Shown in pieces: positions 1 to 64,000 of a DNA stretch of 64,000 nucleotides. The notes under the pieces were generated by a model. The model made no database searches. It was not told the origin of the DNA and worked only from the letters and a program-made list of their open reading frames with translations. Each line of letters begins with the position of its first letter. Within the stretch, counting starts at the first letter, position 1. Source of the stretch: Isoetes taiwanensis (lineage: Eukaryota; Streptophyta; Lycopodiopsida; Isoetales; Isoetaceae). The stretch spans positions 24,446,700 to 24,510,699 of the forward strand of contig JAJEKV010000010.1 of assembly GCA_021234155.1 (NCBI GenBank), written 5' to 3'. Made by a program: the position numbers and the translations under genes.

Positions 1-49
1 AGCCGTCCGATTTAAGGCGTGGTCCATTACATAACATTATAATATAGGA
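1..49 (-). mobile_element. Helitron 5' terminus, left-truncated by the window (H1)
   Basis: Read on the minus strand this begins TCCTATATTATAATG and continues into ATGGACC...CGGACGG, the same terminus seen complete at 28227. The base after it (50) is T, as expected for an A^T target. The flank that follows (52-58, CTAATGT) equals the flank of the Helitrons ending at 16484 and 28227, so this is the end of the last Helitron of a preceding repeat unit lying left of the window. Confidence 0.8.
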
Positions 50-339
50 TTCTAATGTTACGACGGATGTATTCTAATTCTGTGAACGCCAAAGAGATGT
101 ATTCGAGTGCTCATTCAAAAATCCCAAGATCAAGTTGTCACTATATCTCAATCTTTATGAATATTTAAAAAGAAAATAATGTAAAAGCAATTGAATATTC
201 ATAGAAGACAAATTGCTCACGTAAAATAGTTTAATTATCAGCCTAATTGTGAGCTTAAGTAAAAATGTGTACAAGTAAATTGTGGGCAATTTTCACCAAC
301 AAGTGCCAACCTGAGATTGTAGATTCATAGTACGTTTTA
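50..339. repeat. Leader spacer of tRNA-Pro repeat unit 1
   Basis: AT-rich, non-coding, about 290 bp. It recurs almost unchanged at 1065-1372, 16485-16774, 28228-28517 and 29281-29591, each time just upstream of a UGG tRNA-Pro gene. The versions at 1065 and 29281 carry an extra stretch (about 1106-1138 in the first). No ORF or known RNA was recognised. Confidence 0.8.
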
Positions 340-411
340 GGGTATTTGGTCTAGTGGTATGATTCTTGCTTTGGGTGCAAGAGGTCCCGAGTTCAATTCT
401 CGGAATACCCC
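340..411 (+). tRNA. tRNA-Pro(UGG), array member t1
   Basis: The 72-nt cloverleaf closes fully: acceptor GGGTATT with AATACCC plus discriminator C, anticodon stem CTTGC/GCAAG with loop TTTGGGT (anticodon TGG), T stem CCGAG/CTCGG with loop TTCAATT. Internal A box (TGGTCTAGTGG) and B box (AGTTCAATTCT) are present. The 3' CCA is not encoded, as in nuclear genes. No run of four T occurs in the next 25 bp, so a standard pol III stop is missing. Confidence 0.88.
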
Positions 412-531
412 ATGAACTATGCCCTTTCTCTTGTTTGATATAAGCATTTAATATCCACTAATGTCAGGATTTTAAAGGGATGCAAAGCCAATAAAAATTT
501 ATATTTCATAATAGCCTTAGAAAACGTCTTA

Positions 532-603
532 CTGTATTTGGTCTAGTGGTATGATTCTTGCTTAGGGTGCAAGAGGTCTCGAGTTCAATTCTCGCAATAC
601 CCC
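532..603 (+). tRNA. tRNA-Pro(AGG)-like, t2, degenerate
   Basis: Anticodon loop TTAGGGT gives AGG. The first acceptor bases read CTG instead of GGG and no longer pair with ...CCC. The T stem (TCGAG/CTCGC) has a mismatched outer pair. The anticodon stem and A box are intact. Probably a tRNA pseudogene or a weak gene. Confidence 0.65.
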
Positions 604-723
604 ATGAACTATGGTGTTTCATTTATTTGATATAAGCATTTAACATCTCACTCATGTCAGAGGTCAAAGGGATGCAAAGCCGATACAACTTTATTTCTCG
701 TAATAGACTCATAATATATGTTA

Positions 724-795
724 GGGTATTTGGTCTAGTGGTATGATTCTTGCTTAGGGTGCAAGAGGTCCCGAGTTCAATTCTCGGAATACCCC
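724..795 (+). tRNA. tRNA-Pro(AGG), t3
   Basis: All four stems pair, with CCGAG/CTCGG in the T arm. It is identical to t1 apart from the anticodon loop (TTAGGGT, anticodon AGG), the expected wobble-inosine isoacceptor. It lies 192 bp after t2. The downstream spacer beginning TGAACTATGGTG contains TTT but no TTTT. Confidence 0.88.
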
Positions 796-916
796 ATGAA
801 CTATGGTGTTTCATTTATTTGATATAAGCATTTAATATCTCGCTCACATCAGAAGGTCAAAGGGATGCAAAGCCAATACAACTTTATTTCTCGTAATAGA
901 CTCATAATATATGTTA

Positions 917-988
917 GGGTATTTGGTCTAGTGGTATGATTCTTGCTTTGGGTGCAAGAAGTCCCGAGTTCAATTCTTGGAATACCCC
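917..988 (+). tRNA. tRNA-Pro(UGG), t4
   Basis: Complete cloverleaf with anticodon TGG. The T stem is CCGAG/CTTGG with one G.T wobble, and the variable region reads AAGTC. It is the last gene of repeat unit 1. A T5 run lies about 10 bp downstream (TGCTTTTTGTG), the clearest pol III stop in the cluster. Confidence 0.85.
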
Positions 989-1372
989 ATTATGCTTTTT
1001 GTGAGGATATCACTTCGTGCAACATTCAATGACATGATTGAATTAAACACTCTAGGTTGCCTAATGTTACAACGGATGTATTCTAATTCTGTGACTCTAG
1101 CAATACGCCAAAGAGATGTATTCTAGTTATATCATTTGAGTGCTCATTCAAAAATCCCAAGATCAAGTTGTCACTATATCTCAATCTTTATGAATATTTA
1201 AAAAGAAAATAATGTAAAAGCAATTGAATATTCATAGAAGACAAATTGCTCACGTAAAATAGTTTAATTATCAGCCTAATCGTGAGCTTAAGTAAAAATG
1301 TGTACAAGTAAATTGTGGGCAATTTTCACCAACAAGTGCCAACCTGAGATTGTAGATTCATAGTACGTTTTA

Positions 1373-1444
1373 GGGTATTTGGTCTAGTGGTATGATTCTT
1401 GCTTTGGGTGCAAGAGGTCCCGAGTTCAATTCTCGGAATACCCC
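1373..1444 (+). tRNA. tRNA-Pro(UGG), t5
   Basis: Identical in structure to t1, with all stems paired and anticodon TGG. It follows the second copy of the leader spacer. Confidence 0.88.
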
Positions 1445-1564
1445 ATGAACTATGTCCTTTCTCTTGTTTGATATAAGCATTTAATATCCACTAATGTCAG
1501 GATTTTAAAGGGATGCAAAGCCAATAAAAATTTATATTTCATAATAGCCTCAGAAAATGTCTTA

Positions 1565-1636
1565 GGGTATTTGATCTAGTGGTATGATTCTTGCTTAGGG
1601 TGCAAGAGGTCTCGAGTTCAATTCTCGCAATACCCC
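1565..1636 (+). tRNA. tRNA-Pro(AGG)-like, t6
   Basis: Acceptor GGGTATT/AATACCC is intact here, unlike t2. The D arm has a G-to-A change (TTGATCTAG) in the A box and the outer T-stem pair (TCGAG/CTCGC) is mismatched. Anticodon AGG. Function doubtful. Confidence 0.65.
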
Positions 1637-1757
1637 ATGAACTATGGTGTTTCATTTATTTGATATAAGCATTTAACATCTCACTCATGTCAGAAGGTCA
1701 AAGGGATGCAAAGCCGATACAACTTTATTTCTCGTAATAGACTCATAATATATGTTA

Positions 1758-1829
1758 GGGTATTTGGTCTAGTGGTATGATTCTTGCTTAGGGTGCAAGA
1801 GGCCCCGAGTTCAATTCTCGGAATACCCC
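1758..1829 (+). tRNA. tRNA-Pro(AGG), t7
   Basis: All stems pair; anticodon AGG; variable region AGGCC. A Helitron starts 19 bp after its 3' end. The first TTTT downstream lies inside that Helitron, near 1863. Confidence 0.85.
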
Positions 1830-1959
1830 ATGAACTATGGTGTTTCATCTTATATTATAAAGTTTTAGCGTATGTCATGAATCAAACCCTAATTTGTATG
1901 GTTGAGATCATCTAATTGCATTCGAAGGATGAAAAGAGCACAGAAAAACAGAGTTATAG

Positions 1960-3409
1960 TCGGGAATCCTTTCGGCTGCATTGCATGTTGCATTTAGGTG
2001 TAACAAACACAGATATTTCATTGCAAAACGCTACTAACTTAGCAGTGGACTTACTCCACTGCGATCTTCCTAGGTTTTAAAACTGCTCTGCTACCAGCAT
2101 CAACTTCGAGGCCTCCATGCCATCAGTAAATCAAGTATTCTTTATAATCTGGCCATGCTATCAGTAAATCAACTCCCCATTCATATGATTTTAGAAGCAA
2201 TCTTCCTATGTTTATCGTGTCGCTACCAAAGATCGTAGATGCAGGCCTCCATGCCTTCTATCATCTTTTGCTTTGAGTATTCTTTATAATCGCCATGCCA
2301 TCAAGAAATCAACAACCGACATTTTGCATCAAAACTACATTCGAGCAATTCTTTCAGTCTCCACGATTCTTTGGCTATTTCACCGCAAAATGATAATTTC
2401 TATTTTAAACAATGCATATTAGACTTGAAACTTGCTATAGATTGATTTGTTTACCAAGTTCAAGGAGATTGATCTCGAATTGGGGTATTATCTAGAGAAA
2501 GTGAAGCAGCTTTTAGGTAGTGCATCATATAGAGTTGTACCCTTGGCGCTTGCCCTTATCCGAAAATCAACGAACACAATAGCAAAAATCTTTAAGTTGC
2601 TCTTTGTTCCGTAATGATAATTTCAATTTCGTTTAGACCCCATTCTTGGTAAGTGAAACAATCACTGCATGATGATATTTTTCTCGCAACAAAAAACGTA
2701 AAGCCATAAGGGCTGAATTATCAATACCGACAAATGGTCCAAAGCAACTCGAATGCGGCCGTTTCATGCCAGAGTCTGCTGTTAGAGTCTCACATATATC
2801 TATGTCTCGATCCGACTTTGTATCCATAGGGATATATATTTTCTTGACATGCTTTATATAAAAGTAAGCCGAGTCCCTATTAAACCACCTATTGCTATAG
2901 TGATTTATTAGCCACCAATGCCGCCCGCATACATTTGATCAGAGGCAATGATGGCTGATATCGGCAACTCCTTGCTTCCTTTTTCCGCAGGACTTGGATA
3001 TCCTCTATTATAATGTTATGCAAGGTGTCCATTAGGCATCTTGCCCTAGATCGGGCAGTCTAGAATTTGTTTCAGATATCGACTACCGTAACAAAATCTT
3101 ATTTTTTCTAACCCTTTCTCCATTTTCTCTCGTGGTCGTAGAGCTCCGCTTGGAATTGCCGCATAGCGTAAAAGCAAATTGAAAGCCTTTCACAAAAATC
3201 CGGGCGTAGCATTTTGTTATCTCTTTTTTGCACTCGATTCCGCATTCGCTTGTTTCCAGCCATGCACCTTGCCTTTGATTCGGCCTGTCAGCAGCTGCCA
3301 GATTTGGTCTAAACCCCTTTGGTTACTTCAGTTGTGGCCTTCTGTTGCTTCAAGATTCCAGACTTAGCTCTCTAAGGTGCACAAAACTAGCTCTAAGGTG
3401 CACAAAATG
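1960..3409. other. Non-coding body of Helitron H2, left part
   Basis: No convincing gene. It contains three related short stretches around 2100-2330 (each with GCCATCA..AAATCAA) and a block starting about 3055 with the phrase TCTAGAATT.GTTTCAG that recurs at 5994. The equivalent of 1960-3409 is 17340-18827 in copy B. Differences between the two sit mostly at CAG/CTG triplets. Confidence 0.6.
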
Positions 3410-5839
3410 CTCTCCAGAGAGGATTTAGCGGAGGCATGTATGTGCATGGCCAAGGATAAATGTCCTGGGCTGGATGGCATCCCCTCGTGGGAGTTCTTTT
3501 CGCACTTATTGGGAGTGGGCTGGTGAGTCTGTGTACCAGGTGTATCTTGAGTTGCTGCAGTCTTCTCACATGGATAGGATCTTGAATACCGCATGCATTT
3601 CCTTGATTCCTAAGGTTAAGCAGCCTTCTACTATTAATGATTGGAGGCCTATATCCTTGTTGTCCTCTGTGTACAAGATTATTGCGAAAAGCCCCGGCCG
3701 AGAAGTTGAAGCCGTGTTGACTTCTTCCATTAGTAAGGTGCACCGGTTTGGTTTGTTCGGGAGGAACATTTTGACTAATGTTGCCGCGCAGCTTATGAGG
3801 GCCTTTATTGGGCCGGAGAACAGTCAAGGCATTGCCTATCTTAAGCTTGACTTTGCCAAAGCTTATGATAGTGTCCGTTGGGGAGTTCTTGTTCGCCATG
3901 ATGTTAGCGTTGGGCTGTGGTCCACGCTTTACGAGAGAGCCATGAAGTCTGCATAGGTCAAAGCACGGGCTACTCTGGTGGTGTGCCGGGGAACCCTCCG
4001 CCTTTTCTCCTTAGGCGTAGGGTAAGGCCGTGGGTGCCCTTTGGCACCATTTTTGTTTACGATTGGGCGGAGGCACCGCCTCGCTTGTTTTGGGCAAGTA
4101 GTGGAGGAGGGGTGGTGGATGGGCTTCGGATGCAAGATGGTAGTCAGCCAGATTATTAACCGGTTCGCCCGATGACACTTTTCTCTTCTTGGTGGCGTAA
4201 GAGAGGAATTTGCGGAATGTGAAGGGTTTGCTGGATACTTTCTCCTTGGCCTCGTGCATTCTTCCTCGAATTGGGGTAAATGTCCGCATTATGGGCCCAG
4301 CTTGACTCCGCCCCCCCTTGTTTGGCTCTATTCCCTTGGAAGGTGCTTCCGTAATGTGTGTACTAAGTCATTGGGTATTCCCTTTGGAGGGGATGTTTCC
4401 ATGGGGAGGGTGTGGGATGAGATTTTGCGGGGTTGCGTAAACACCTCAATTGGTGGAAGGGTAGCAAGTTGTCCATGGCGTAGGATCACTATTGCCAAGT
4501 CAAGACTTTGTAGCACTCATGTGTATACAAAGATCTCTGCGATGTTAGCTCCGAGGGTAAGATACAAGCTTTGGATAAGATTGTTCAAACTTTGTGTGGG
4601 GCGGGATGATGAAGGGGCGGTTGTTAAAGTGGCTTGGTGGGAAGTGTCTCCTACCGAGGATGGGGGCTTGGCCATTCCGGATTTGGCACCGCATAGTAAG
4701 GTGTTGGTCTCTAAGTTTATTTGGAGCATTCCCCGGATGGAGCATCTTCTCCTGGTGCGGCACTATTGTGGCAATCTCTTCGCCATTGTGTGGCATTTGG
4801 AAAGTCGCCCTGCGTTGCATGTAAAGTTGCCCCGGGCACTGTTGTATGGTCTCCGGCCTTTCCCACATGCATCCCCTTTCTCCGCGGGGGTGTTGGGGCT
4901 TGGGATCACGCGGCGTGTGCTCTTCCAGCTAGATTATGCCTCGCTTTATCACCACTCTTCTCCTTTCTTGTGGGTTCCTCTACCCCCTGCATTACTTGCC
5001 CTTGGTCGCCATCGCATGCATGCTCGGACGCAAGTTCGCTGGAGGCGGTATTTGTGCTCACCTTGGAGGATTGGTATTGGGATGGTCAGCTAGCTTCGGG
5101 GAGTTCTTTTCGAGCTTCGCTTTAGCACCAAGGACGCTGGACCGGGCTATCTCGGGAACAAGTGGCGGGGTATTCCGCTACACATACCTATAGTCCCTCG
5201 GGTGATGTGGTGGTGCAGATTTGGAAGGTTCATCCAGATGTTGTATCTTCTTGTTTTTGTGCGGTCTTGTTACCGGGTGTTGGCTATTCATGACACTCGC
5301 CCCTTCGTGCAAGTGGTCTCGCAGCTTCCGGTTCTCGATGGCGCCGGTTTGACGTGGACATGGAGCTCACTTCCCCACCGAAGGTTCGGGTGCTTCGTGG
5401 CGGGTGGTGCAATCACATCGTGGTGAATGTCCTTGTGAGTCGGTTTAGGCGGGGTGTGAGCCCTCTTTGCCCTTGTTGTGGCCTTCATCGTGAGACTGTG
5501 GAGCATTGTCTCGGTTTTATGCCCTCACTTGCAGTTGCCCGGGATTGGGTCGTGGCTCGCTTTCAGGTGAGATTGAATAGCCAACAATTGCTGCTTCATG
5601 TATATCCCGGGTGCTTGGTCACAGACGGGCAAAGAAGCCTTGCATCAGTCGCGTGGCTTGGTTGGTGGGTTGATTTGGAAGCGGCGGCAGTTGTGGATCT
5701 TTCAGGGGATTCAGCAGCCTGCAGCCTCTCTGATTCCTCGACTCAGGTACAAGCTATTTCAAAGCTTTTTGGTGTTCCCGGGATTAGTAGAGCGGAAGTT
5801 TTTTATTTGGCGGGACTTCTTGGGTGTGGTAGATGGTGA
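3410..5839 (+). pseudogene. LINE ORF2 fragment (reverse transcriptase and 3' part), frame-broken
   Basis: Successive frames give LINE RT motifs. The first is KCPGLDGIPSWEFF near 3457-3500, followed by a frameshift. Next come LIPKVKQPSTINDWRPISLL (about 3603-3662) and YLKLDFAKAYDSVRWG (about 3837-3884). The rest moves between frames; a C-terminal stretch (5354-5839) contains CPCCGLHRETVEHCL, like the cysteine/histidine-rich zinc-binding end of plant L1-type ORF2. The endonuclease and most of the upstream protein are missing by 5' truncation. No YADD-like box survives in a readable frame. Dead element. Confidence 0.85.
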
Positions 5840-5987
5840 TGGTCAGTTTGTACAGCAGTAGAGTTGCAGTTGTTGTGGAGTGTCGAGGTATCACTGTCTC
5901 TTTGGGGCAGTTCTCCTTCCTCCTCACTTGCTTTGTAACATTACCATTCTTTTAATATATTGCTGACACAGTTCTTCAAAAAAAAAA
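3410..5987 (+). mobile_element. 5'-truncated LINE with poly(A) tail
   Basis: The left flank ends CACAAAATG. The right flank is poly(A) (5978-5991) then TGGTCTAG. Copy B has the uninterrupted site CACAAAATGGTCTAG at 18820-18834, so the insertion is precise. The target duplication is AAAATG, possibly longer but masked by the A tail. The insert begins directly in reverse transcriptase coding sequence, typical of incomplete target-primed reverse transcription. It is absent from copy B and therefore inserted after the A/B duplication. Confidence 0.9.
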
Positions 5988-5993
5988 AAAATG

Positions 5994-7405
5994 GTCTAGA
6001 ATTCGTTTCAGGAGATCGACGGTCAGGACAAAATCTTATTTTTTCCTAACCCTCTCTCCTCAGTGGTCGTAGAGCGCCGTTGGAATTGCTGCATAGCAGA
6101 AGAGCAGCTGGGAAAGCCTTTCACAAAAATCTGGGCAGAGCATTTTTTTATCCCTCTTTTGCACTCCGGCATTCCAGATTCGTTTGTTTCCAGTTTCGTT
6201 TGTTGGCTATATTACTTAAGGTTATTCTCAAGATCCAGCATTTTGTATGAAAGAAGTAGATATTGGAATTACAACACAAGTTGAAGGTTTGGATGTGAAA
6301 GATTTAATACTGGAAAAAAGACTTGAAATACGTGCTTTTTAGATCATAGAGTCAACGTATTGCAATATGTATTCGGCTAAATGTATATTTTCAAACCTTG
6401 AAATGTTTTCTACTGCATTTGCATTTGAATTTTGCAGAGAGATAGGACTGTCATGGTAAATGATGCAATACAATTTGTCACTGATATGCAGAAGACCTAT
6501 TATCTAGAAGGAACTATAATTGCATTATTGTGTTATAAGAGTAATTATGCAGGTGCCAACTGACCATAGCTGACAAAAACATATGCTCAATTTATTGAGC
6601 TTGCGAACCATAGCTGACAAAAATACCTATTCCATTTGCTGAGCTTGCTCTAAGGTATATGTAACAAACATGGCCGATCCAAAAATGATGTGCCATATAA
6701 GTGATTGAAGCTGATTTGAAAAGGGCGAGCCCCATGAATTGATTATTTGAGATAGCTGATTATGTTTCAGTGTTCTGATGGGACAATGCAACTTCAATAC
6801 AATATATATTCGTCTTATAATGCATCGATGCTATGGAGGTCAAGCACAATCAACATTACTATGGAGGCATGATTTCAAAATAGAAAGTTACAGCAACCAA
6901 TCATTTTTGTACCTAAGAGACCATACGTGTAAATCAACACAAAACAATTTTGTCCTACAAACCATATGTGTAAATCAACAAAACAATGTCATTTATGCCA
7001 TTTGTTTGTGGCCTTGGAGATGGCATGAATAATTGAGGTTGTACATGCATTGAAAAGCTAGAAAATTGCATCACAAAAAGTCAGGCAATTTCATATGGCC
7101 ATATCACGAAACACAAATGTAAATGCATGGCATAGACTTCCGATCTAAAATCAACATTAAGGGTTGGCGAAGATCACTTACAATACATTGCAATAGAACA
7201 AGACGAAATCAAACACTACGTATGTAGAAGCATGAGTTCACAAAATTTTCTATATCAAGTATCCTATCTAAAATCAACATTAAGAGTTGGAAAAATCAAG
7301 TACAATATAGTAGAATAAGAGGAAATCAAACATTACATATGGAGAAGCATGAGTTCATAATATTTCTCTACATTAGAAAGGGGAAAGTATAATATTCTAT
7401 ATCAA
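5994..7405. other. Non-coding body of Helitron H2, middle part
   Basis: AT-rich sequence with no supported gene. It matches copy B (18828-20279), so it is original Helitron content. Around 7150-7400 a phrase with AAAATCAACATTAAG occurs twice, suggesting a local duplication. Confidence 0.6.
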
Positions 7406-7586
7406 CTAGTTATGGTGCCCGGCGTTCTTTGGCATAATTTGAACCCGTAAATGTTGGGGTGCCTATAATATTAAGTGATATTGCTTCTTGGTGGTATTAG
7501 ACATGTTATTGTTGATTCTTCTATATACTCATTTGCAATTGGTTTTGATCTTTTCAATTTCTCTTCCTCAATAGTCTAAAGAGTTT

Positions 7587-7675
7587 GGAGGAGGAGGAGG
7601 AGGAGGAGGAGGAGGAGGAGGAGGAGGAGGAGGAGGAGGAGGAGGAGGAGGAGGAGGAGGAGGAGGAGGAGGAGG
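7587..7675 (+). repeat. (GGA)n microsatellite, about 29 units
   Basis: Uninterrupted GAG/GGA triplets inside Helitron H3. Purine-only on the plus strand, which is the antisense strand of this Helitron, unlike the long purine tracts of H5, H9, H11 and H12. Confidence 0.97.
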
Positions 7676-8302
7676 CTTTTTTTGTTTTGTATTATTTCCT
7701 TTGATCAAATGTCTTAATATTTTCTACGCATAGGTTGAATGTTTAGAAACATGTAGAAATTAGAAATACATTTAGCATATAGATAAACCAATTTTGATAT
7801 TGTTGTAACGTCCATAAAAGAGTTATTATCTCTTTTCAACTTACAATCTGCAGTGGATTGCCATTTTTCGTTAAGTGCCAAACTCGCCCAAACCCCGTGA
7901 TTAGTCGGATGATGAATCAAGCCTACATTAGCGATTGCTCAGGAGCACTATTTTGGAGCAAAGAAAATGAACCTTTTATTAGAGTTACAGAATATTGGCA
8001 AAGTGCACACATACTATATAGCGAACTCTTCAGTTTTGTGCCAAGACTCCAACCGCAGAATGCTAAAATATAATTATATAAGTTGATTAATGATGGCAAG
8101 AACATCATGGACATTGTGCTTGATTACCTCTATCTGCACCATATCTATTAATGTAGAGTGGTATGGTATTTCTTAATGTAGAGTGGTATTTTTGAATGAA
8201 GTTTGAACCATCTGAATGTCTTAATACTTGAAGATGTAGAGAGATGCATGGTCATATTGAGGCATGACACAAAGAATGATTATGGTGTGATGATGTTAGG
8301 TA

Positions 8303-8740
8303 CTAACAAATGTTTACCACACATATCCTTGTAAACAATATGCTTGCTTCCACATCGCGTGAAAGCACCTGGGTCCTTTTTTCTTTGTAGCAAAGTGTTG
8401 AGATTTTCCTTGAACCCACCCTAGTGTCTTTTCCAGTATACTCTTTCTTACCTCTTTTCGGAGGAATGAAGAGCAAGAGCCAAGCCAGACCCAATAAATA
8501 CAGCACATAAGCCCTCGATCCAGGTGCCTTCCTAGCCATGGCCCTGTGAAAAACTGCTGCAACATAATAATGTAGCACAATGCTCCACTGCATCAAAGCT
8601 CCCACTTTAGCTCGAATTTTATTCCCTGAACAAACTGTGATCAATTTGAAACTGTATAGCAGCAAACATACAAAATAATTTCCCTGAAGCAGCTGCAGGA
8701 ATATGAAAATCGAAGGCGCACTCTTTTGCACTAATGCCAT
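8303..8740 (-). pseudogene. Captured gene fragment in Helitron H3, probable membrane protein
   Basis: The minus-strand ORF of 145 codons starts at an ATG (8740) with MALVQKSAPSIFIFLQLL. It contains two hydrophobic stretches, the clearest around AYVLYLLGLAWLLLFI. A candidate exon (complement 8452-8625) is flanked by TTCAG and GTAAGA, so part of the ORF may be intron read-through. Fragments lie in the sense orientation of the Helitron, as is usual for captured exons. The family was not recognised and no complete protein can be built. Confidence 0.45.
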
Positions 8741-9500
8741 GATAACTTGCCTGCATGGATAGGTTTATTATCAGAGGTCTGTATTATTTGGGCTATAAAA
8801 TGTGACATGCATACCCAAGTGTTAGAAGAGACTTGTTGATGTTGGCTGCCTCTTTAAGAGGATCACCTTCTGCACCGGATGACCTTTGCCTGTTCCAACA
8901 GAAAATGACAAAGAGGCCACTTCATTAGCATGCATTATCTGTACAATAAAAGAAACGAAAGATTAGGCATTATGAGACCTCTCAACCCACAACAAAACAA
9001 ACAGAAAAAACAAACAGAGAGCTAGATAAGGCTAGACTTGCTGCAGCTATGGCGTTTGCAAGTCCAATTCTGCTGCCATATATTTAGGTTGGTCCAGTCT
9101 AGCTCCATGTAAGTATGACATGCTTAAGCAGAGATATACTTCGGCCAAGATGGATTAAGGTTATAAATCATGGCCCTGATACTATGCACACAGAATGCTA
9201 GCAAGTGGATGCCCATCTGAATGCCAAATGCTATTCAGAAGCAACCAACAAAGCTCAGAATTGTTTATATTTGGAGCAAGAAGAAAAGCTTCCTTATACA
9301 AAACATAGCCAACAACCCAACTCTTCTAGCAAAGCCATGAAGAGCCAAAGAGAATTTAACTTTTGTATTCATCTTTTATACAAACGAAAGTAGCAGTATG
9401 GTGTATACCTCCACTGCAGTATGCATGGTCGGCAATGAAGTTTCCGTAGATAGGAAAAAATCATCTCACTTCAAGAGATACTAAATGAGACCATCGATCT

Positions 9501-9703
9501 TGCCGGAATCGAAAACCTAGAGAAGAGAAGCCCGAACATGAGCTTGTGATCCTGATGTGGGCTCAATGTGGAGAAGGGTGTCTATCCCATACATGGTAAT
9601 GGTGCCGGAATCGAAAACCTAGAGAAGAGAAGCCCGAACATGAGCTTGTGATCCTGATGCGGGCTCAATGTGGAGAAGGGTGTCTATCCCATACATGGTA
9701 ATG
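9501..9703. repeat. Tandem duplication, 102-bp period, two copies
   Basis: The phrase TGCCGGAATCGAAAACC starts at 9501 and again at 9603. The two copies are almost identical through TACATGGTAATG. Internal to Helitron H3. Confidence 0.93.
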
Positions 9704-9918
9704 CAGGCACACACCATTACGATTGTAAATGTATAGGCATCTCATTCTGTTGGGCGCCGGAGGAGCCATGCCAAATCCCCGCGCTTCTCTCCGTTTTTGC
9801 AAGCCCTAAAAATCGCCCTAAAAATCCTGACCATCGAAATTACTAAGATGGATCTCAGCCAACCAATCTAGGGCTGGATCCAAATCCAGGAATTACAACA
9901 AAACATTATAATATAAGA

Positions 9919-10406
9919 TTGTACCACATAAACACAAGCCCCATAAACATGAACCACATATACCCCAAACCATATAAACACAAGCCCCATAAAAACGGAC
10001 CACATATAGACCAACAACATTGGGGGCTTGGTTTTCTATTTCTCAATGATTATATTCTCCTGTTCGGGTGTTCATTAAAGGAAGGTACATATACATTTCG
10101 AGCCAATATCTTAAAGCGAGCGTATAAATGCAAAAAGAAGAGACAAACTTTCAAATCCTTTGTATTAAGACCCGCTCCTCCAATATACACAAAAAATGCA
10201 AAATTAGCGACTATTATGTAACGACGTGTCTCCAAAATTTTTCCACGAGTTTCCAAATTAGAATGAAGAAGCTCTAAGGTTTATAATATATTCCAAGTGA
10301 AGCTTATCTCAAGATTACATAATTAGTTTATCTCTCGCTCTTTTCTTCTCTCTTATCACCTACATTTACCCAACTTATGCCCAGCAACGCTGGGCACCAT
10401 TACTAG
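9919..10406 (+). other. 3' part of Helitron H2 with conserved subterminal region
   Basis: Identical over most of its length to 20280-20767. It ends in the 7-bp stem hairpin (GCCCAGC/GCTGGGC) and CTAG. A 100-codon plus-strand ORF (9919-10221) is the same in both copies, begins with a non-ATG codon, and is rich in H, K and N from short repeats of CCACATA and AAACACAAGCCCCAT; I do not regard it as a gene. Confidence 0.7.
10390..10406 (+). terminator. Helitron 3' end: hairpin stem end plus CTAG
   Basis: The GC-rich palindrome GCCCAGCAACGCTGGGC (10380-10396) sits about 6 nt upstream of the final CTAG (10403-10406). This is the replication-terminator arrangement known for Helitrons. It lies only 10 bp upstream of the NIF-like gene ATG, so the gene now has Helitron sequence as its immediate 5' leader. 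Confidence 0.85.
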
Positions 10407-10416
10407 TAGTAAAATA

Positions 10417-11994: not shown

Positions 11995-12066
11995 GGGTAT
12001 TTGGTCTAGTGATATGATTCTTGTTTAGGGTGCAAGAGGTCCCGAGTTCAATTCTCGGAATACCCC
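11995..12066 (+). tRNA. tRNA-Pro(AGG), t8
   Basis: Cloverleaf with anticodon AGG. The anticodon stem CTTGT/GCAAG has a T.G wobble, and GTGGTA in the D loop is changed to GTGATA. The T and acceptor stems are perfect. It follows directly on the fragment at 11718. Confidence 0.78.
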
Positions 12067-12259: not shown

Positions 12260-12338
12260 ATTATGCTTTCTGTGAGGATATCACTTCGTGCAACATTCAA
12301 TGACATGATTGAATTAAACACTCTAGGTTGCCTAATGT

Positions 12339-53058: not shown

Positions 53059-53398
53059 TAGAAACAAGCAAGTGTTAGGACTGAGTCAAAGAATGCATAT
53101 TGAAAACATGCTGGAAAAATTTGGGATGAAGGACTGCAATTGTGCAGATACACCAATAATACCCGGACATAAGATATCAGAGCAGCAGTGTCCCCAGACA
53201 GAAGAAGAGATAAGAAAATGGAAAAAACACCTTATAGGTCTCTTATTGGATGCTTATCCTATGTTGCTAATTGCACCAGGCCCGACATAGCGTTTGTTGT
53301 AAACTTGCTGAGTAGGTACAATCATAATCCGGGAAAAATACATTGGATTGCAGCAAAGCGTATATTGAGGTATCTAAAAGGCACAATGGACTTTGGAA
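53059..53398 (+). pseudogene. Copia reverse transcriptase, second part
   Basis: Contains VLGLSQRMHIENMLEKFGM and, after a frameshift in an A run near 53222-53227, YRSLIGCLSYVANCTRPDIA and RILRYLKGTMDFGI, all standard Copia C-terminal RT. The frame enters Helitron H12. Confidence 0.95.
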
Positions 53399-56300
53399 TC
53401 TTATATTATAAAGTTTTAGCGTATGTCATGAATCAAACCCTAATTTGTATGGTTGAGATCATCTAATTGCATTCGAAGGATGAGATTTATCGCACGACTT
53501 CCTACCGCCGTGATTGGCCATGCTTTGAAAAGGGAAAGGGAAAAGGAAAAGAGAGGAGAAAAGGGCAAAGTGAAAGGCAAAAAGGCACAGGTAAAAAGGA
53601 AAGAAGGAAAAGGGAAAATAAAAGGGAAAAGAGCACAGAAAAAAAGGAAAGGAAAAGAAAGGGAGAAAAGGAAGGAAAAAGGGCAGTACGAAAAGGAGAA
53701 GAGGGAAAAGGTGAGGACAAGAGTAAAAGGTACGGGAAAAAGGGGAAGAGGGAAAGGGTAGAGAGAAGGGAAAGGAGGAGGAGGAGGGAGTGAAAAGGCA
53801 CACTGGGGAGAGAGAAGAGGGAAAAATGTGGGGAAGAAGAAAAGGAGAAAAAGGACACAAGAAAAGGGGAAGAGAAAAAGGGAGGGGAGAAGAGAAAGGA
53901 AAAGGGAAAAGAAAAAGAGAGGGGAAAGCGGGGAAGGGAAGGAAAAATGCATAGAGAAAACTGGAAGAAGGAAGGGGGAAAAGTGAAGGGAAAAAAAAAA
54001 AAGGTGAGGACAAGAATAAAAGGTACGGAAAAAAGGGGAAGAGGAAAAGGGTAGAGAGAAGATAAAGGGGGAGGAGGAGGGAGTGAAAAGGGACACTAGG
54101 GAGGGAGAAGAGGAAAAACGTGGGGAAAGGAGAAAAGGAGGGGAAAAAGGACACAAGAAAAGGGGAAGAGAAAAAAAGGAGGGGAGAAGAGAAAGGAAAA
54201 GGAAAAAGAAAAAGAGAGGGGGAAGCGGGGAAGGGAAGAAAAAAGGGCATAGAGAAAACTGGAAGAAGGAAGGAGGAAAAGTGAAGGGAAAAAAAGAAAG
54301 AGGGAAAGTGTGAGGAAAGAGAAAAAGGGAAGGTATGGAAAAACGGAACGGGAAAAGAAATGGACCATATCTATAGATAAAGTTATAGCGTAAGTATGTC
54401 ATGAAGCAAACCCTAATTTGTATGGCTTAGATCATTTGATTGCATCCATAAGCCGTGATTTATTGCACAACTTCCCACCACCGCGATTGGCCATACTTTG
54501 ATCTCTTAAGAGGAAAGGGTAAAGGAAAAGGGAGGAGGAAAGAGGAAAAGTGAAGGGCAAAAAGGCATGGACAAAAGGGAAAGAGGGAAAGGAGAAAAGG
54601 GCAGGGAAAAGGGAAAGAGAAAGAAAAAAAAAGAAAGGGAGAAAGGGAAGGGAAAAAGGACACCGAGAAAAGGGAAAGAGGGAAAGGGAAGGGAAAAGTG
54701 AAAAAAGGAAAAGGGTAGGGGTGAAAACGAGCATGGGAAAAGGGAAAGGAAAAGGGGGGGAGTGTGTGGGAAGAAAGAGAGGACATTGGGAAAGGGAAAG
54801 GGTAAGGGGGGAAGGGAAAAGGGAAGGGAAAAGGACAAGAGGAGAAGGAAAAGAGAAAAAGGGAAGGACGAAGGGAAGGGAGCGAAAAAGAAAACGGGAG
54901 GGGGGAAAGGGGAAGAGGAAAAGAAGAAGGAAAAAAAGAAGGAGGAGGGAAAGGGTACGGAAAGGGGAAAAAAAAAAGGATGGGAGAAAGGGAAAGTAAC
55001 ATATGAGGAAGAAAAGGGCAAGGGAAGAGGGAAAGAGAAAAAGTGGAAGAGGAAAAAGGTGAGGAAAGGAAAACGAGCACGAAAAAAAAAAGGGAAGAGG
55101 AAAATGATGGGGAAATGGGAAAGTAAAAAGAAATGGGAATGGGATAAAGGAAAGAGAAAGGGAAAAGAAAAGAGAGGAAAGGGGAAAAGGGCACGTGGAA
55201 AAGGAAAATAGAAAAGAAAAAGGAGGAACGGGAAAAAGGGCACGCGGAAAAGGAAAGGGGAAAAGGGCACGGGAAAAAGAGAAAAAGGGAAAGGGTGAGG
55301 AAAGGGAAAGCGGAATCGAAAAGGAAATGAGAGGATAAAAGGAAAGAGAAAAAGGGACACGGGAAGAGGAAAAGGAGGAAAAGGGAAGGAAAATGGGTAC
55401 CGAAAAAATGGGAAGTAGAAAAGGGTGGGGAAAAAGAAAGGCATGGGAAAAGGAAAAAGGGGGGAAAGGAAAAAAGAGAAGGAAAGGGAGAATGTGAAGG
55501 GCAAAAAGGCACGAGGAAAAGGAAAAAAAAATAGAGAATGCAAAAAAGGGAAGGAAAAAAGGCATGGGAAAAAGGGAAAAGGGAAAAGGAAAAGGGGAAG
55601 GAATAAATGGCTTGGGAAAGGGAGTAGAAAACGAATGGGAAAAATGAAGGGAAAAAGGGCACCATCAAAAGGGGAAGGGAAAGGGTGGGAAAAAGAGGAA
55701 AAGGGAAGGAAAAAGGGGAACTGAAATGGAAAAGGAAATGAAAAATAAAAGGGAGGGGGGAAAGGGAAAAAAGAACCCGGGAAAAAAAGCAAGAGGAAAA
55801 GGGGAAGAGGGATAGGGGAAAAGGGAGGGGGGAAAGGGCACGAGAAAAGGGGAAGAGGAAAGGGTGAACAAAGGGTAAAAGGGAAGCGAAAAGAGCATGC
55901 AAATGGAAGGGAAACAAGGCATGGGGAAAAGGGGACGAGGGAAAGAAAGAGCAAGAAAATTAGAAAAGAGAAGGAAAGAATGTCATGGGAAAAGGGAAAG
56001 GAAAAAGGAAAAATAGAGAGGGGAAAAGGGGAAGGAAAGGGTGGGGAAAGGAGGAAAATGGAAGGGAAAAAAGGGAACGAAAAAAAGGTGGGGAAAAGAG
56101 GAATAGCGAAATGGGAAAAGAGAAGGGGAAAAAGGCACAGAAAAAGGGCGAAAGAAAGGGGAAAAAAGAAGCCAAGAAGAGCATGGAAAAAGGGAAAAAG
56201 AAAAGAAAAAGAGGGAAAGGGTGGGGAAAAGAGGAAAAAAAGGAAAGAATCAACCAGGAAAAGGTTTGGGAAGAAGGGAAAGGGAAGGGCAACATAGGGG

Positions 56301-56538
56301 GAAACAAGGATGTGAAAAAAAAGAAGTAAAAAAAGAAAGAAACAAAGGAAGCATGCAAGGAAAATAAAAAAAAAAAAGGAAAAGGAAAAAGGAAAAAGAA
56401 AAGAGTAAAAGCAGCGTATAGAATGGTATCGAATATGTTAACAATGGAGTACTTTCGGGTTATTCTCTCATTGCTATTGTGTATCATTTACAGGTTCTCA
56501 GTCAACTTATGCCCAGCAACGCTGGGCACCGTTCCTAG
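53399..56538 (+). mobile_element. Helitron H12 (3140 bp), polypurine body, in Copia pol
   Basis: A53398 | TCTTATATTATAAAG ... GCCCAGCAACGCTGGGC, ACCGTTCCTAG | T56539. Joining flanks restores the codons for DFGIMYKLSDL. It is very similar to H9 over its whole length, including the second internal head (about 54365-54510) and the non-purine end (56405-56520). H9 and H12 are therefore recent copies of one element. Confidence 0.96.
53525..56400 (+). repeat. Polypurine tracts of Helitron H12
   Basis: Two A/G blocks (about 53525-54360 and 54510-56400) separated by a head copy. Same order of minor motifs as H9. Confidence 0.95.
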
Positions 56539-57036
56539 TCATGTATAAATTGAGTGATTTGAGTTTGCATGCTTATTGTGATGCTGATTGGGGAGGTGAT
56601 TTGGATCAAAGAAAATCAACCTCAGGTTATTTGGTAATGCTAGGTGGAGCTCCCATAGCCTGGAAGTGCAGCATAGCTTTATCAAGTGCAGAGGCTGAAT
56701 ATCATTCAGCTTCTTTGGCAGCTAGAGAAGTTGTTTGGGAAAGAAGGCTGATGAATGAGTTAGGATACAATCAAATGAAAGCTACTATCATGTTTTGTGA
56801 TAATACTAGTTGCATAGCTATGTCTAAGAATCCAGTTCAGCATGAAAGATCTAAGCACATAGAATTGGAGATACATTTCATACGAGACATGGTAAGCAAA
56901 AATCTGATACAGATGCAATATGTTTGCACAGATTAACAAAAGGCAGACATTCTAACTAAAGCCCTGCCAGCACACAGATTTGTAAAACTGAGAGAGTTGA
57001 TGCAATGTTGCAAATCGGATATTACATGAAAGGGGG
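56539..57036 (+). pseudogene. Copia RNase H and C-terminus
   Basis: HAYCDADWGGDLDQRKSTSGY (about 56568-56630), LSSAEAEYHSAS, FCDNTSCIAM and HERSKHIELEIHFIRD are the RNase H motifs with all catalytic acids present. A stop at 56934-56936 precedes the conserved QKADILTKALPAHRF, so the last ~30 codons are cut off by a nonsense change. Confidence 0.94.
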
Positions 57037-57038
57037 AA
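57029..57038 (+). other. Polypurine tract (plus-strand primer) of the Copia element
   Basis: AAAGGGGGAA directly before the 3' LTR TGAAGATATTG. Confidence 0.88.
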
Positions 57039-57450
57039 TGAAGATATTGTTCATGTAATATTGGGAGAAATCTGTGATGCTCATGATTATTCAAGATCTA
57101 TTGTTTGACATAGACTTGAAGAACAGAAGAACAAAATAAAGAACAAAAGGACAAGTTCATAGTTTCAAGGGAGTTGATTGAACCCAATGGTCTCAATAGA
57201 TTATATGGTCGAAAAGGAAAGGGTTGAAGTTTACTTAAAATAAAGATCATTATTTTTAGAAGATATTTGAAGTATCGAATGGTGTTAAGCCAAAAAAGGC
57301 TCGCTTGAAAAATTAGCTTATTTTTGAGCGGCAACAGCAGATCGGTCCGGCATGAATGCCGAACTGAGAAAATGAAATGAATTAGTATCTATTATGTTTT
57401 TGAGTTAACCGGAAAGTGGCTTGCAGATCGTAATCAAGCCGGCTTGGGCT
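57039..57450 (+). repeat. 3' LTR of the Copia element, truncated
   Basis: Matches the 5' LTR up to GGCTTGGGCT, then changes abruptly; 173 bp of LTR end are missing. It contains a short AAAAGGAAAGGG insertion near 57210 relative to the 5' LTR. Confidence 0.9.
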
Positions 57451-57535
57451 GAAAAGCAAAAAAAAAGGGGTTTGGACGTATTGGGAAACCCCAAGGGAAA
57501 ACCTAGGCCCGACTCTTTGGTGTGGTATCAGAGCG
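57451..57535 (+). mobile_element. Scrap of another LTR retrotransposon (LTR end plus PBS)
   Basis: AT/GC-mixed sequence ends in TGGTATCAGAGCGGC at about 57522, a tRNA-Met-type primer site followed by CAGCAGCGGC. It differs from the Copia LTR, so a second LTR element or its leader was fused to the truncated 3' LTR. Confidence 0.5.
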
Positions 57536-60440: not shown

Positions 60441-60566
60441 CAAACCTGAATCACTAGAGCCGCCGTTGCCTTCATTTTTCGGTTTCCCTATCAATTAGTT
60501 CATTGTTAACCCGTGAATCTACTCTATTGTTGCTTGCATCACCCGCAATGTGGGCAAAAATATTGC

Positions 60567-60952
60567 CTAAGTTCGCGCCATCACAAGATTTTTTGAGCAG
60601 CCAGGTTTAGCGACTATTTGTTCATTATTGCTTTCCTTATCGTCGCAGATTACTAGTTCCCTCACCAAAAGCAACGCCCACTTTCGAATTGGACAAGTCA
60701 CGAGACTTTTGATTGCTGATGATTTCAGGTTGCCATAAGGGCCTTTAGGAGACTTGGCAAGCACATGCATGAGGAATGGTTCAAGAAAGTCTTTGGCCCG
60801 CTCATCACTCACAAAGCGGTGACATCTTCTTGCACCCATAAGAGCCTCTCTCGGCAATATAACCTCCAACATGAAGCTCCAAGCAGGTTGTATCAATTGG
60901 AGCAAATGCCTCGACGAGGTAAGCAGCCATAGACGGGGGAAATCCATTTTTA
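60567..60952 (-). pseudogene. Upstream coding fragment, unknown
   Basis: Two minus-strand frames overlap. One gives NGFPPSMAAYLVEAFAPIDT and CLELHVGGYIAERGSYG. The other continues VSDERAKDFLEPFLMHVLAK SPKG. A frameshift near 60810 would join them. No family assigned. It lies upstream of the NIF-like copy on the same strand. Confidence 0.4.
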
Positions 60953-60953
60953 T

Positions 60954-61241
60954 TTAAGGGCCCTTCTCCTTAGTTTGTAGCTCGTACTTGATTTCCCCAC
61001 TTAGGAGGGGGTCCCGATCCTCATCCTCTTCTGACTCATCCTGTTCTGACTGATCCTGATCCGTATGAAAGAATATAGTTCTTAAGTCTGGATCATCTAG
61101 AAGAAAACATTCCCATGCACTGCTATTGTCACCCTTGGCCTTAGCAATATCATATTCCTCGTCTGACAGCATGGATATCATAATAAAGATCACATGTGCC
61201 ATCTTCCGTTCTGTTCGCAGCTCATTATCCTTAACATCATA
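60954..61241 (-). pseudogene. Coding fragment cut by Helitron H13
   Basis: The minus-strand frame is open from the Helitron boundary (61241) to a stop at 60954: DVKDNELRTERKMAHVIF..., a short hydrophobic stretch, then an acidic run (QSEQDESEEDEDRD). The ATG at 61202 is probably internal, since the frame is open upstream to the insertion. It may continue into the fragment at 60952 (GPLNKNGFPP) if the intervening stop is an error. Unknown family. Confidence 0.45.
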
Positions 61242-64000
61242 CTAGTAATGGTGCCCAGCGTTGCTGGGCATAATTTGGAAGCCTATGAAAGTTCTAGCTG
61301 CAATGAGAAAATTACGCAGTATCAATTTAATATTTGTACTCTTTTCTCGTAATTTCTGTACAAAGGATAAAAAATGAACGGGTGCCAAGAATATGTTGTT
61401 GGATTCGTTCATTAAAATGTTGGCAAAGTATAGCTTGAAATACCTTCAATTGTAGGAGGGTGATGTCTCATTCATTCAAGTTCACATCGAATAACGTCAT
61501 TGAACCATATAAATCATCGGTTGATTGCTCCAGCTGAGCAATGTGTTCGAAGCACATCGCCCGCATCATTTTTTGTAGGTGCCTCAAAAGCAAAAGCATG
61601 ATGCTAATTGATACATTTTTTCGGATGCCTCAGAAACAAAAGCATGACGTTAATTGATATATTTTTTTTTGAATGCAACGAAAAATATGTCTTATCCTAG
61701 GGTTGATAACAATGCCAAGATCTTTCGATACCTAAGTTGTGTGTTCCTTATTGTCTTCCATCTTCGTTGTAGGGGAGAATTTTAAGAGAAAGTTCTTTAA
61801 AAAGGGCCTTTTATCCACGCCACACGTCATTTTACCATACCCCCTTTCGTTTCGTATAACCCTTGTAGTTGTTGTTAAAAAAGGACATGGCAATACAATC
61901 ATTTAAGTATAAAATTGTAGTTGTTGAAAAATGACATGGCGCATAGTTGTAGAAAAGGACATGGCAATACAGTTATTAAAGTATAAAGTTGTAGTTGTTG
62001 GAAACGAACATGGCATTAGAGTTATGTAAGTATATAAAGGAACAAACACCAAAGTCTTTTCAAAATATAAAATCATTCCTCAAAAAGTGCACAAAGTAAA
62101 CAAAGTCCGGGCATCCCATTAATCTATGACAGCCTTTGTCTCCAAACATCACCGGAGCATTTTACAAATTTACCCAAAGCCTGCCATATAATTGTAATTT
62201 GGTAACTGTAAATGTTGAAAACTTGTTGGCCATATAATTATTTGTGGGAGCGTATTTTATGTTGTCTTTAATTTGTATCCCAACTTCTTTTTTGAGCTAT
62301 TTCAATGGCCATTTTTTTGCCTAGCTTAATTAATTATCTGTTTGCATTTTTTTTTTTTAGCCGATGGGCCCTTTGAGCTTTATTTATTGGGTTTATCAAC
62401 ATTTAAAAATGTTGTATGGTTCTTTGAAATGACTATTGTATATGCAAAGATGATTTTTTGAAACAACTACTGTATATTTTATATATGCAATAATTACATT
62501 TGACATTGTCTTTGCACAATATTCCATGTCATGCTAGCTTTGTTATATGAACTTAGAGTCTTTCTTATAGATCAGCATACTCCATAAGAGGATTATTTGA
62601 AAAAATATAAATTACACTTCTGGCACAGGGCAATGCTGATATATGCTTACAGATTCTTTAGAAAGACCTAATCTGCTTATGGATCTAGACAAATATAGCG
62701 CATCTTTATACATGATACAACAAATTGACACTGCAAGGCACATTTGGGTTAATGTAAATCTTTGTATTATGTTTCTTTATACATGCCCTGTCACATTGGG
62801 CAATCCATTGCAGAATTTGACATGTACCAGGAACATCTAAACATTTGTGTCATGTTGCTATTGTAGAAGGTAAATATTTGTAAGTGTGGCCGAAACTCCT
62901 TATCCGATGAAGCTAAATATGTTAAAATGCTGACAAAGCCTGGTGTGCTTTAATGTTAGAAAATGAACATTTAGTCTACAGACCATCTCAAACTTTGCAT
63001 GCTATCTTACCTGTTTGAATATCAGCTGAGCGGCATCCCTCATATGATTCTTGACATGGACGAAATGGTCTTTTGCAGGTAGCACACATGTAGTCAAATA
63101 GGATTTTATTCTTGTACACCTTGGGTCTCCCCGACTACCATGCAAGAAATAAGACTATGTCTGCCCCAACTATTCTAGCAAAAAAAACATTTCAATCCCT
63201 ATCAAATCCAAAGCAAATAAACATATCCTTTGTTGAAAACAACAGATTCTTTGTTGAATTACAATAAACATTTTCAGATATATCTCGGAGGATTGAGAGA
63301 CATAACCTCATATCTTTAGCTTGATGTGATGGTATTCATCACAAAACATGTCTCACTGCCATGCGCATTCTGATGGAAGGCTGAACATATGGCCGGTTTG
63401 AAGACTCCTGAAATTCACAATCATATACCAAAGAATTCAATCAAAATAGCAACCAATGCAAATGTTCCTAACCAAGTTTTGTCCCACCAAGCTTAAACAA
63501 TTTGGAATAGAGAATTGATTTAAATGGCGATCCCTTTTGTGCATTTGTACATGGCCGTTGGACACGATTCGACCCTAAAAAGCGAAAGACAAAATCTTTA
63601 TATTCTCGCTTAGACGTAATGAAAACACATAATGATCTGCAAACTAACTCGCCATGTCCTATTTCAATCGGACCAATTCTAAGGGCAATATCTAACTATA
63701 AGTCGACGTGAATAGAGACCCAGCTCTAAAAGCACATGTTTGTGGAGTGGATCTCTATATTATAAGCTAGCTAAGATCAAAACAACTACGCTTTAAAGCA
63801 CAATTCATAGTAAAAAATAATTACATGTAGCAATTACCGCCATTAACGTAGAAATCCTCCTCAAGAACTCAACTCGACAAAGCTATGAACCCGGCATTTT
63901 TAGCCATCCTTGGGCAAAGGCTTTGAATCTGGGTAGATAATAGCAAGAGGCAAATCATGTTCGTAAATCAAGCTTTGTGAAATATTCTTTGGAATGAATC
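61242..64000 (-). mobile_element. Helitron H13, minus strand, 5' end beyond the window
   Basis: A61241 | CTAGTAATGGTGCCCAGCG and perfect hairpin GCCCAGCGTTGCTGGGC give the 3' end. No convincing AATATAAGA terminus occurs before 64000, so the element is at least 2.76 kb or is truncated. 61340-61770 is a degraded relative of 40335-40800. The rest is AT-rich; I see no gene. Confidence 0.8.
61319..61770 (-). pseudogene. Degraded relative of the 40.3-kb two-exon gene, inside H13
   Basis: Shared phrases include AATGAACGGGTGCCAAGAAT, ATATGTTGTTGGATTCGTTC and GATTGCTCCAGCTGAGCAAT. The exon 1 repeat (GATACCTAAGTTGTGTG) appears once here and twice at 40690-40790. Frames are broken and part of the intron region is duplicated (two GCATGA.GTTAATTGATA stretches near 61600 and 61645). 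Confidence 0.75.

What the first reader, a model, noticed from the sequence alone, without database searches (positions are those of the whole stretch)
1..64000. One Helitron family accounts for at least thirteen insertions in 64 kb
Termini are constant: 5' TC (mostly TCTTATATTATAA), 3' palindrome GCCCAGC-AAC-GCTGGGC about 6 nt from CTAG, host A before and T after. Placements: ends at 49; 1848-10406; 7406-9918; 12495-16484 (split); 14905-16471; 17250-20767; 21638-24604; 25815-28227; 30068-33379; 46133-50447; 51067-53058; 53399-56538; 61242 onward. Interiors are unrelated, so only the ends define the family, as expected for non-autonomous Helitrons. It may be undescribed; I could not search a repeat library.
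Basis: partly seen in the sequence, partly recalled or inferred. Interest (0 to 1): 0.8.

Follow-up and report, generated by a model that had tools for sequence, protein, structure and literature searches.

The report
Plant Helitron family with polypurine copies
This stretch of a large plant genome is riddled with one family of rolling-circle jumping genes (Helitrons), and about half of the copies sampled elsewhere in that genome carry an unusual interior made almost only of A and G on one fixed strand.

Summary
The ends are real Helitron ends: the exact 3' 28-mer is followed by T at 1788 of 1793 genome sites. Eight of ten distinct insertions have an empty counterpart without target duplication. 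A 7.8-kb copy with both family ends encodes a Rep/PIF1-helicase open frame resembling Helraiser.

Three claims need changing. (1) Thirteen placements are ten insertions; a tRNA-Pro-bearing tandem duplication copied some. (2) 1848-10406 and 17250-20767 are not single insertions; each joins the 5' end of one Helitron to the body of another. (3) Interiors are not all unrelated.

The new point: four of the ten (D, F, H, I) are 84-89% purine on the element strand. Of 60 genome 5' ends sampled by list order, 30 were >=80% purine at +350..549 and none <=20%. These tracts hardly self-fold. Nine searches of an open-access library showed no description; Repbase and Dfam could not be searched. Whether the tract helps transposition or hitchhikes is open: no selection was shown, and shared ancestry may explain the constant strand.

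The parts
1..49 (-). A1: 5' end of Helitron A, tandem copy; body lies left of the window
   Evidence: 5' end and flank identical in flank to 16484 and 28227
1848..1945 (+). 5' end of an F-type Helitron in a tRNA-Pro spacer, fused to B1
   Evidence: same insertion point as F; matches 53399-53483 at 100% over 86 bp; siblings of B lack it
1946..10406 (+). B1: 5'-truncated Helitron B, holding a reverse-transcriptase-bearing insert (about 3414-5987) and Helitron C
   Evidence: 3' flank matches empty site at 60431; complete relatives L032 and L033
7406..9918 (-). C: 2513-bp Helitron inside B1, related to the Rep/helicase copy
   Evidence: exact empty site at 20266; shares 5' 54 bp and about 560 bp interior with the Rep/helicase copy
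12495..16484 (-). A2: Helitron A, split by D
   Evidence: tandem copy of A3; D's empty site lies in it
14905..16471 (+). D: 1567-bp polypurine Helitron (84% purine) inserted 13 bp into the 5' end of A2
   Evidence: exact empty sites at 23 and 28201; purine fraction
17250..17347 (+). 5' end of an F-type Helitron fused to B2
   Evidence: positions 1-98 absent from B's siblings
17348..20767 (+). B2: 5'-truncated Helitron B, tandem copy of B1 without its inserts
21638..24604 (-). E: 2967-bp Helitron within a copy of the NIF-phosphatase-like region
   Evidence: empty sites at 11261 and 59553, one substitution each in 28 bp
25815..28227 (-). A3: 2413-bp complete copy of Helitron A, 3' palindrome degraded
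   Evidence: both ends; no empty site found
30068..33379 (+). F: 3312-bp polypurine Helitron (86% purine) in a tRNA-Pro spacer
   Evidence: nine empty spacers in the window, 2-3 substitutions in 28 bp
46133..50447 (-). G: 4315-bp Helitron in a copia element
   Evidence: flanks adjacent in 6 of 7 sibling copia loci
51067..53058 (-). H: 1992-bp polypurine Helitron (89% purine on its own strand) in the same copia element
   Evidence: flanks adjacent in 6 of 7 siblings
53399..56538 (+). I: 3140-bp polypurine Helitron (86% purine) in the same copia element, 92.8% like F
   Evidence: flanks adjacent in 5 of 7 siblings
61242..64000 (-). J: Helitron, 3' end at 61242, 5' end beyond the window (equivalent 64948; 3707 bp)
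   Evidence: empty site not tested
42762..57451 (+). Host of G, H and I: copia LTR retrotransposon (LTRs 42762-43126 and 57075-57451, 93.7% identical)
21..30067 (.). Tandem duplication units (starts near 21, 16458, 28199) with tRNA-Pro genes, which copied A and B
   Evidence: self-BLAST 94-98%; tRNA genes

Best explanation
A canonical plant Helitron family: Rep (HUH) plus PIF1-type helicase, 5' TC, 3' hairpin then CTAG, insertion between A and T. SHOWN HERE: the ends; precise insertion without target duplication at eight of ten sites; co-occurrence of the ends genome-wide; and a copy with both ends and a 1198-aa Rep/helicase open frame. INFERRED from the Helraiser paper (PMC4778049, passages) and general knowledge: the Rep protein nicks at the 5' TC, the top strand is peeled off as single-stranded DNA, the 3' hairpin/CTAG stops the process, and the strand is joined into an AT target; copies without the open frame are moved in trans. 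The window is dense because of repeated insertion (three in one copia element, one inside another Helitron) plus a tandem duplication carrying tRNA-Pro genes that copied some insertions; a deletion then fused two Helitrons into the 1848-10406 / 17250-20767 chimera (inference). About half of the sampled copies belong to non-autonomous lineages whose 1.3-3 kb interior is roughly 90% purine on the top strand; most likely a copy acquired a GA-rich tract that then amplified with it (inference).
For: 3' end followed by T at 1788 of 1793 exact sites, reversed controls 0. 5' motif preceded by A at 2630 of 3034. Empty sites for C, D, E, F in the window, for G, H, I in copia siblings, for B between L033 and 60431. 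Ends pair in correct order and strand 26 of 59 against 9, 6, 3. The Rep/helicase copy: Helitron_like_N 3.8e-61 and PIF1 1.5e-58, motifs GLPHCH, YIYKY, GPGGTGKT and both ends A|TC...CTAG|T, Helraiser 7lcc 1036 bits over residues 26-1194, and shared sequence with window element C. The two flanks of that copy, read together, spell the family's own 5' end, so it sits precisely inside another copy's 5' end.
Against: A has no empty site and J was not tested. The 5' A is not strict: 404 of 3034 have another base. 33 of 59 3' ends found no partner under exact matching. Only 1 of 12 fetched Rep loci carries the family 3' end in line with its Rep; another (L020) has it on the opposite strand and 10 show none at the tolerance used. 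In the Rep/helicase copy the Pif1 2B domain lies in another frame after the 1198-aa frame, so an intact protein is not shown. Movement itself was not observed.
Confidence: 0.93

Rival explanations
1. The polypurine interior is functional: a purine-only transposed strand cannot fold on itself, so the terminal hairpin is the only strong stop signal; or transcription through it makes a stable R-loop that exposes the top strand to the Rep nuclease. This would explain why such copies are common and always have purines on that strand.
For: 30 of 60 sampled copies polypurine on the element strand, 0 of 60 polypyrimidine; predicted self-folding of seven polypurine interiors -0.001 to -0.011 kcal/mol/nt against -0.087 to -0.101 for seven others; three kinds of 5' head carry the tract in the same orientation; raw purine-to-pyrimidine differences are lower in the tract (4.2%, 4.9%) than in the ends (7.4%, 7.0%).
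Against: The raw substitution contrast counts changes at pyrimidine sites in the ends and not much in the tract, and disappears if the end figure is halved; low-complexity alignment adds doubt. Some interiors look homologous across heads (L054-H 207 against 113 reversed), so orientation may go back to one event; three orientations alike are weak evidence anyway. The bottom strand is equally fold-free.
Confidence: 0.13
2. 1848-10406 and 17250-20767 are genuine single Helitrons of the family, as the first reader placed them.
For: Both outer ends are well formed, in the right order, with A before and T after.
Against: Two near-full-length siblings and the unit left of the window match from position 99 on, none of these from 1; sibling L032 has its own 5' end about 1.24 kb further out; L033 keeps the other 5' host flank; the 5' site is exactly that of F.
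Confidence: 0.04
3. The repeated termini are not Helitron ends but another repeat (for example a satellite or MITE-like element) that happens to contain a palindrome.
For: Tandem duplication and low-complexity interiors are present in the window.
Against: Eight empty sites, no target duplication, T after CTAG at 1788 of 1793, and a Rep/helicase copy with both ends.
Confidence: 0.01

Closest known systems
Maize HelA-type Helitrons (Du et al. 2008, PMC2267711, passages read)
   Same: 5' TC, CTAG 3' end, 16-20 bp hairpin near the 3' end with AA in the middle of CG, host A and T at the borders
   Different: 5' consensus differs (TCTTATATTATAA here); polypurine interiors are not mentioned in the passages read
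Helraiser / Helibat1 of bats (PMC4778049, passages read; PDB 7lcc)
   Same: RepHel protein similar over almost the whole 1198-aa frame; TC/CTAG; 19-bp palindrome 11 nt from the 3' end there, 17-bp palindrome 11 nt from the end here; AT target preference not absolute
   Different: Plant family; activity not shown; the palindrome sequence here was not compared with Helraiser's
tRNA-Cys cluster with annotated Helitrons in Arabidopsis (PMC10701932, passages read)
   Same: tRNA gene arrays associated with Helitrons
   Different: There, three Helitron finders gave no reliable element overlapping the tRNA genes; here F is a precise insertion in a tRNA-Pro spacer with nine empty spacers nearby

Membership tests
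Canonical Helitron | 5' TC and 3' CTRR ends | tested here: met
   12 of 12 5' ends TC and 12 of 12 3' ends CTAG in the window
Canonical Helitron | Hairpin about 10-15 nt from the 3' end | tested here: met
   17-bp palindrome 11 nt from the 3' end, exact in 7 of 12 window ends; predicted 6-8 bp stems in 12 of 14 copies folded, weak or shifted in A3 and C, 5 bp in E
Canonical Helitron | Insertion between A and T without target duplication | tested here: met
   Eight of ten insertions; T after 1788 of 1793 3' ends, A before 2630 of 3034 5' ends
Canonical Helitron | Rep (HUH, two tyrosines) plus PIF1-like helicase in a copy with the same ends | tested here: met
   L019+L034, 7822 bp; helicase C-terminal part in another frame
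Canonical Helitron | Plant-type accessory RPA-like gene (recalled, not obligatory) | tested here: inconclusive
   No RPA-like Pfam match in the seven other forward-strand frames scanned; some frames not scanned
A named Repbase or Dfam family | About 80% identity over the terminal 30 bp (naming rule recalled) | not testable with these tools
   No repeat library on hand; neither terminal string is in a held paper
Target-duplicating DNA transposon (MITE or TIR type) | Terminal inverted repeats with target duplication | tested here: not met
   No target duplication at the empty sites; the two ends are not inverted repeats of each other

The most novel reading that the evidence does not exclude
A lineage of non-autonomous Helitrons has evolved a purine-only transposed strand as a working part: free of hairpins, and possibly prone to R-loops, it lets the rolling-circle machinery run from the 5' end to the terminal hairpin without premature stops, which is why it makes up about half of the sampled family and always in one orientation.
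Probability: 0.13. Interest if true: 0.78.

Novelty: new variant of a known kind. Interest (0 to 1): 0.5.

Why it matters
The family is an ordinary kind of transposon. Its polypurine lineages are not ordinary cargo: one to three kilobases of A and G on the strand expected to be single-stranded during transposition, in about half of the sampled copies. They give a natural test of whether strand composition or folding governs Helitron copy number and termination. Such tracts are likely to be masked as low complexity or filed as satellites in repeat annotation (inference). The window also shows how pairing ends by eye can take a fusion of two Helitrons for one element.

Tried and rejected
Rejected: 1848-10406 and 17250-20767 as single elements; thirteen independent insertions.

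Led nowhere: an empty site for A (the joined-flank query matched one side or a repeat). Species: RuBisCO large chain is plant-like but the clade was not resolved. Of the 12 Rep loci fetched, L020 has the family 3' end on the strand opposite to its Rep and was not counted as support.

Weak controls: dinucleotide shuffles made all 28 interior pairs look related; reversed sequences, a harder control, left some pairs at or near the control (L041-H 121 against 120, L044-F 115 against 104). Selection on the tract could not be shown.

Sampling limits: the 60 5' ends are the first 60 of 100 places listed (contigs C2-C47) out of 2630, all A-preceded; the 59 3' ends are those listed in contigs C1-C88 out of 1788. 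Neither is a random draw. By position, nine of the 15 short pairs fetched are also among the 60, so the two samples overlap. L041 and L042 have the same length on one contig and may be a local duplication. One search's clustering put polypurine copies in 5 of 17 head groups; 'three kinds' is my reading, merging groups 2, 11 and 12 for a shared stretch visible.

Literature limits: of 35 papers holding Helitron and polypurine 15 were listed; two were opened.
Full report
WHAT WAS CHECKED. The window is C908:24446700-24510699 of a 1.66-Gb assembly that holds plant-like RuBisCO large-chain genes. All 12 3' ends are followed by T and 11 of 12 5' ends are preceded by A. The palindrome is exact in 7 of 12 3' ends. 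Genome-wide, the exact 28-base 3' end is followed by T at 1788 sites and by another base at 5. The 5' motif TCTTATATTATAAWGTTNTR is preceded by A at 2630 sites and by another base at 404. Reversed-pattern controls gave 0 in all four searches. The 3' T is almost strict and the 5' A is not; for Helraiser too the AT preference was reported as not absolute (PMC4778049, passages).

INSERTIONS, NOT JUST ENDS. C, D, E and F have empty counterparts inside the window: C at 20266 (exact), D at 23 and 28201 (exact), E at 11261 and 59553 (one substitution), F in nine tRNA-Pro spacers (2-3 substitutions). A, B, G, H and I have none there. G, H and I lie in one copia retrotransposon whose LTRs are 93.7% identical; their flanks are directly adjacent in 6 of 7, 6 of 7 and 5 of 7 sibling copia loci, the rest giving offsets of -11, +4, -14 and -14. 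B is shown by L033, left of the window, where B stands with both host flanks of the empty site at 60431. A has no empty site and J was not tested. None of the eight shows a target duplication.

TEN, NOT THIRTEEN. Self-comparison shows tandem units starting near 21, 16458 and 28199 at about 94-98% identity, each with tRNA-Pro genes (20 in the window by ARAGORN). The 5' ends at 49, 16484 and 28227 are one insertion. The placements 1848-10406 and 17250-20767 are copies of each other and are chimeras: their 5' flank is the tRNA spacer at the site of F, their 3' flank belongs to the empty site at 60431. Two near-full-length siblings, and the unit left of the window, match from base 99 onward; only the two window copies match from base 1 (40 of 1980 candidates scored). 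Sibling L032 is a complete 4638-bp element with its own 5' end about 1.24 kb further out and different host flanks. L033 keeps B's 5' host flank and a degraded 5' end. A deletion joining the first ~98 bp of an F-type copy to the body of B, with duplication of the unit, explains this (inference).

THE REP/HELICASE COPY. PF14214 gave 150 scored matches of 1813 candidates. I fetched 9 kb around 12; 2 of 12 hold the family 3' end, L019 in line with its Rep and L020 on the opposite strand. With the adjoining stretch L034, L019 is a 7822-bp element from A|TCCTATATTATAATG to CTAG|T. Its 1198-aa open frame has Helitron_like_N (3.8e-61) and PIF1 (1.5e-58), GLPHCH, YIYKY and GPGGTGKT, and matches Helraiser 7lcc with 1036 bits. 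The Pif1 2B domain follows in another frame, so an intact protein is not shown. The element shares its 5' 54 bp (92.6%) and about 560 bp of interior (91.6%) with window element C. Its two flanks as printed, read together, spell the family's own 5' end: it sits inside the 5' end of another copy, without duplication, much as D sits in A2.

PAIRING ELSEWHERE. Among the 59 exact 3' ends listed in contigs C1-C88, 26 have a 5' end within 15 kb on the correct strand and side; wrong-side, wrong-strand and both-wrong controls give 9, 6 and 3. Fifteen of the 26 fall at 1.68-2.03 kb.

THE POLYPURINE LINEAGES. Four window elements (D, F, H, I) are 84-89% purine on their own strand whichever way they lie; the other six are 47-50%. 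I fetched 18 of the 26 pairs: the 15 of 1.68-2.03 kb and 3 of about 3.5 kb. All 15 short ones are 81-86% purine (interior 86-91%); the 3 longer ones are 49-50%. To avoid choosing by length I took the first 60 of the 100 5' ends listed and read bases +350 to +549: 30 are >=80% purine on the element strand, 29 between 35% and 65%, one 71%, none <=20%. The 71% copy (L122) is polypurine nearer its 5' end and groups with the polypurine heads. By head motif the 30 are 18 of 23 TGTTATA, 6 of 9 AGTTTTA, 4 of 8 TGTTGTG, 1 of 4 TGTTATG, 1 of 2 TGTTTTG and 0 of 14 TGTTTTA. Applied to the 2630 exact A-preceded 5' ends this suggests about 1300 copies, but the sample is from low-numbered contigs and not random. 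As background, 30 of 540 200-bp pieces of the 12 Rep loci are >=80% or <=20% purine; some may be such Helitrons.

HEADS AND ANCESTRY. I read three kinds of 5' head with the tract: a widespread one (D, I, F with a deletion, and the 15 short copies), one shared by H, L118, L124, L126 and L127, and L123; the clustering itself made five groups of them among 17, none mixed with ordinary copies. Several interiors align better forward than to reversed sequence (L054-H 207 against 113, L043-H 170 against 106) while others do not (L041-H 121 against 120). The constant strand may thus reflect shared ancestry and exchange of ends rather than selection. Raw purine-to-pyrimidine differences are lower in the tract (4.2% and 4.9% in two classes) than in the ends (7.4% and 7.0%), but the end figures also count changes at pyrimidine sites; A-G differences are higher in the tract (11.8%, 12.4% against 4.7%, 4.5%), perhaps from misalignment. 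I do not claim selection.

STRUCTURE. With DNA parameters, the top strands of seven polypurine interiors have energies of -0.001 to -0.011 kcal/mol/nt, against -0.087 to -0.101 for seven other copies including the Rep/helicase one; the bottom strands are alike. The 3' hairpin remains in all seven polypurine copies. G-quadruplex-like motifs number 1-8 per interior on the top strand and 0 on the bottom in the 19 polypurine copies counted. In such a copy the terminal hairpin is essentially the only strong fold of the transposed strand. That this helps the element is a hypothesis.

LITERATURE. In nine searches of the held library I saw no title or abstract start describing polypurine Helitrons. 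Two co-occurrence papers were opened: in PMC7385966 the purine terms concern LTR priming sites and in PMC3630058 'polypurine' is in the abbreviation list. Other listed papers were not opened for this. Neither terminal string is printed in a held paper. Repbase, Dfam and most subscription papers could not be searched, so 'undescribed' is unproven.

VERDICT. A genuine, high-copy canonical Helitron family. The part worth a second look is the polypurine, strand-constant half of the sampled family.

Noticed in passing
340-1829, 11995-12259, 16775-17231, 25320-25581, 28518-30049: Twenty tRNA-Pro genes (anticodons AGG and TGG as called) in arrays of about 193-bp units, carried by the tandem duplication.
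   Followed up: partly
42762-57451: One copia element with LTRs 93.7% identical has taken three Helitrons (G, H, I), which bounds their age by that of the copia insertion.
   Followed up: partly
10748-11389; copies near 20768-21638 and 59118-60431: NLI-interacting-factor-like phosphatase open frame (Pfam NIF 4.6e-15); the second copy is interrupted by Helitron E.
   Followed up: partly
3414-5987: Insert in B1 absent from B2, with a weak reverse-transcriptase match (RVT_1 1.2e-5, below its cut-off) and a run of A at its right edge; LINE-like.
   Followed up: no
3001 and 18419: A second, diverged family 5' end (TCCTCTATTATAATGTT) inside B, also in L032 and L033: a possible relic of an older nested or end-to-end copy.
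   Followed up: no
L034:1312-1665: SCAI-like fragment (Pfam PF12070, 1.4e-6) near the 5' end of the Rep/helicase copy: possible gene-fragment capture.
   Followed up: no
L048 and L049 (C38:15337-18865): Two polypurine Helitrons lie end to end in the same orientation, three bases between the CTAG of one and the TC of the next, by the coordinates.
   Followed up: no
14905-16471; L019 with L034: Two copies (D and the Rep/helicase copy) sit inside the AT-rich 5' end of another family member: possible preference for the family's own ends.
   Followed up: no
genome-wide: Border asymmetry: T after 1788 of 1793 exact 3' ends, but A before only 2630 of 3034 5' ends, the exceptions mostly T and G.
   Followed up: partly
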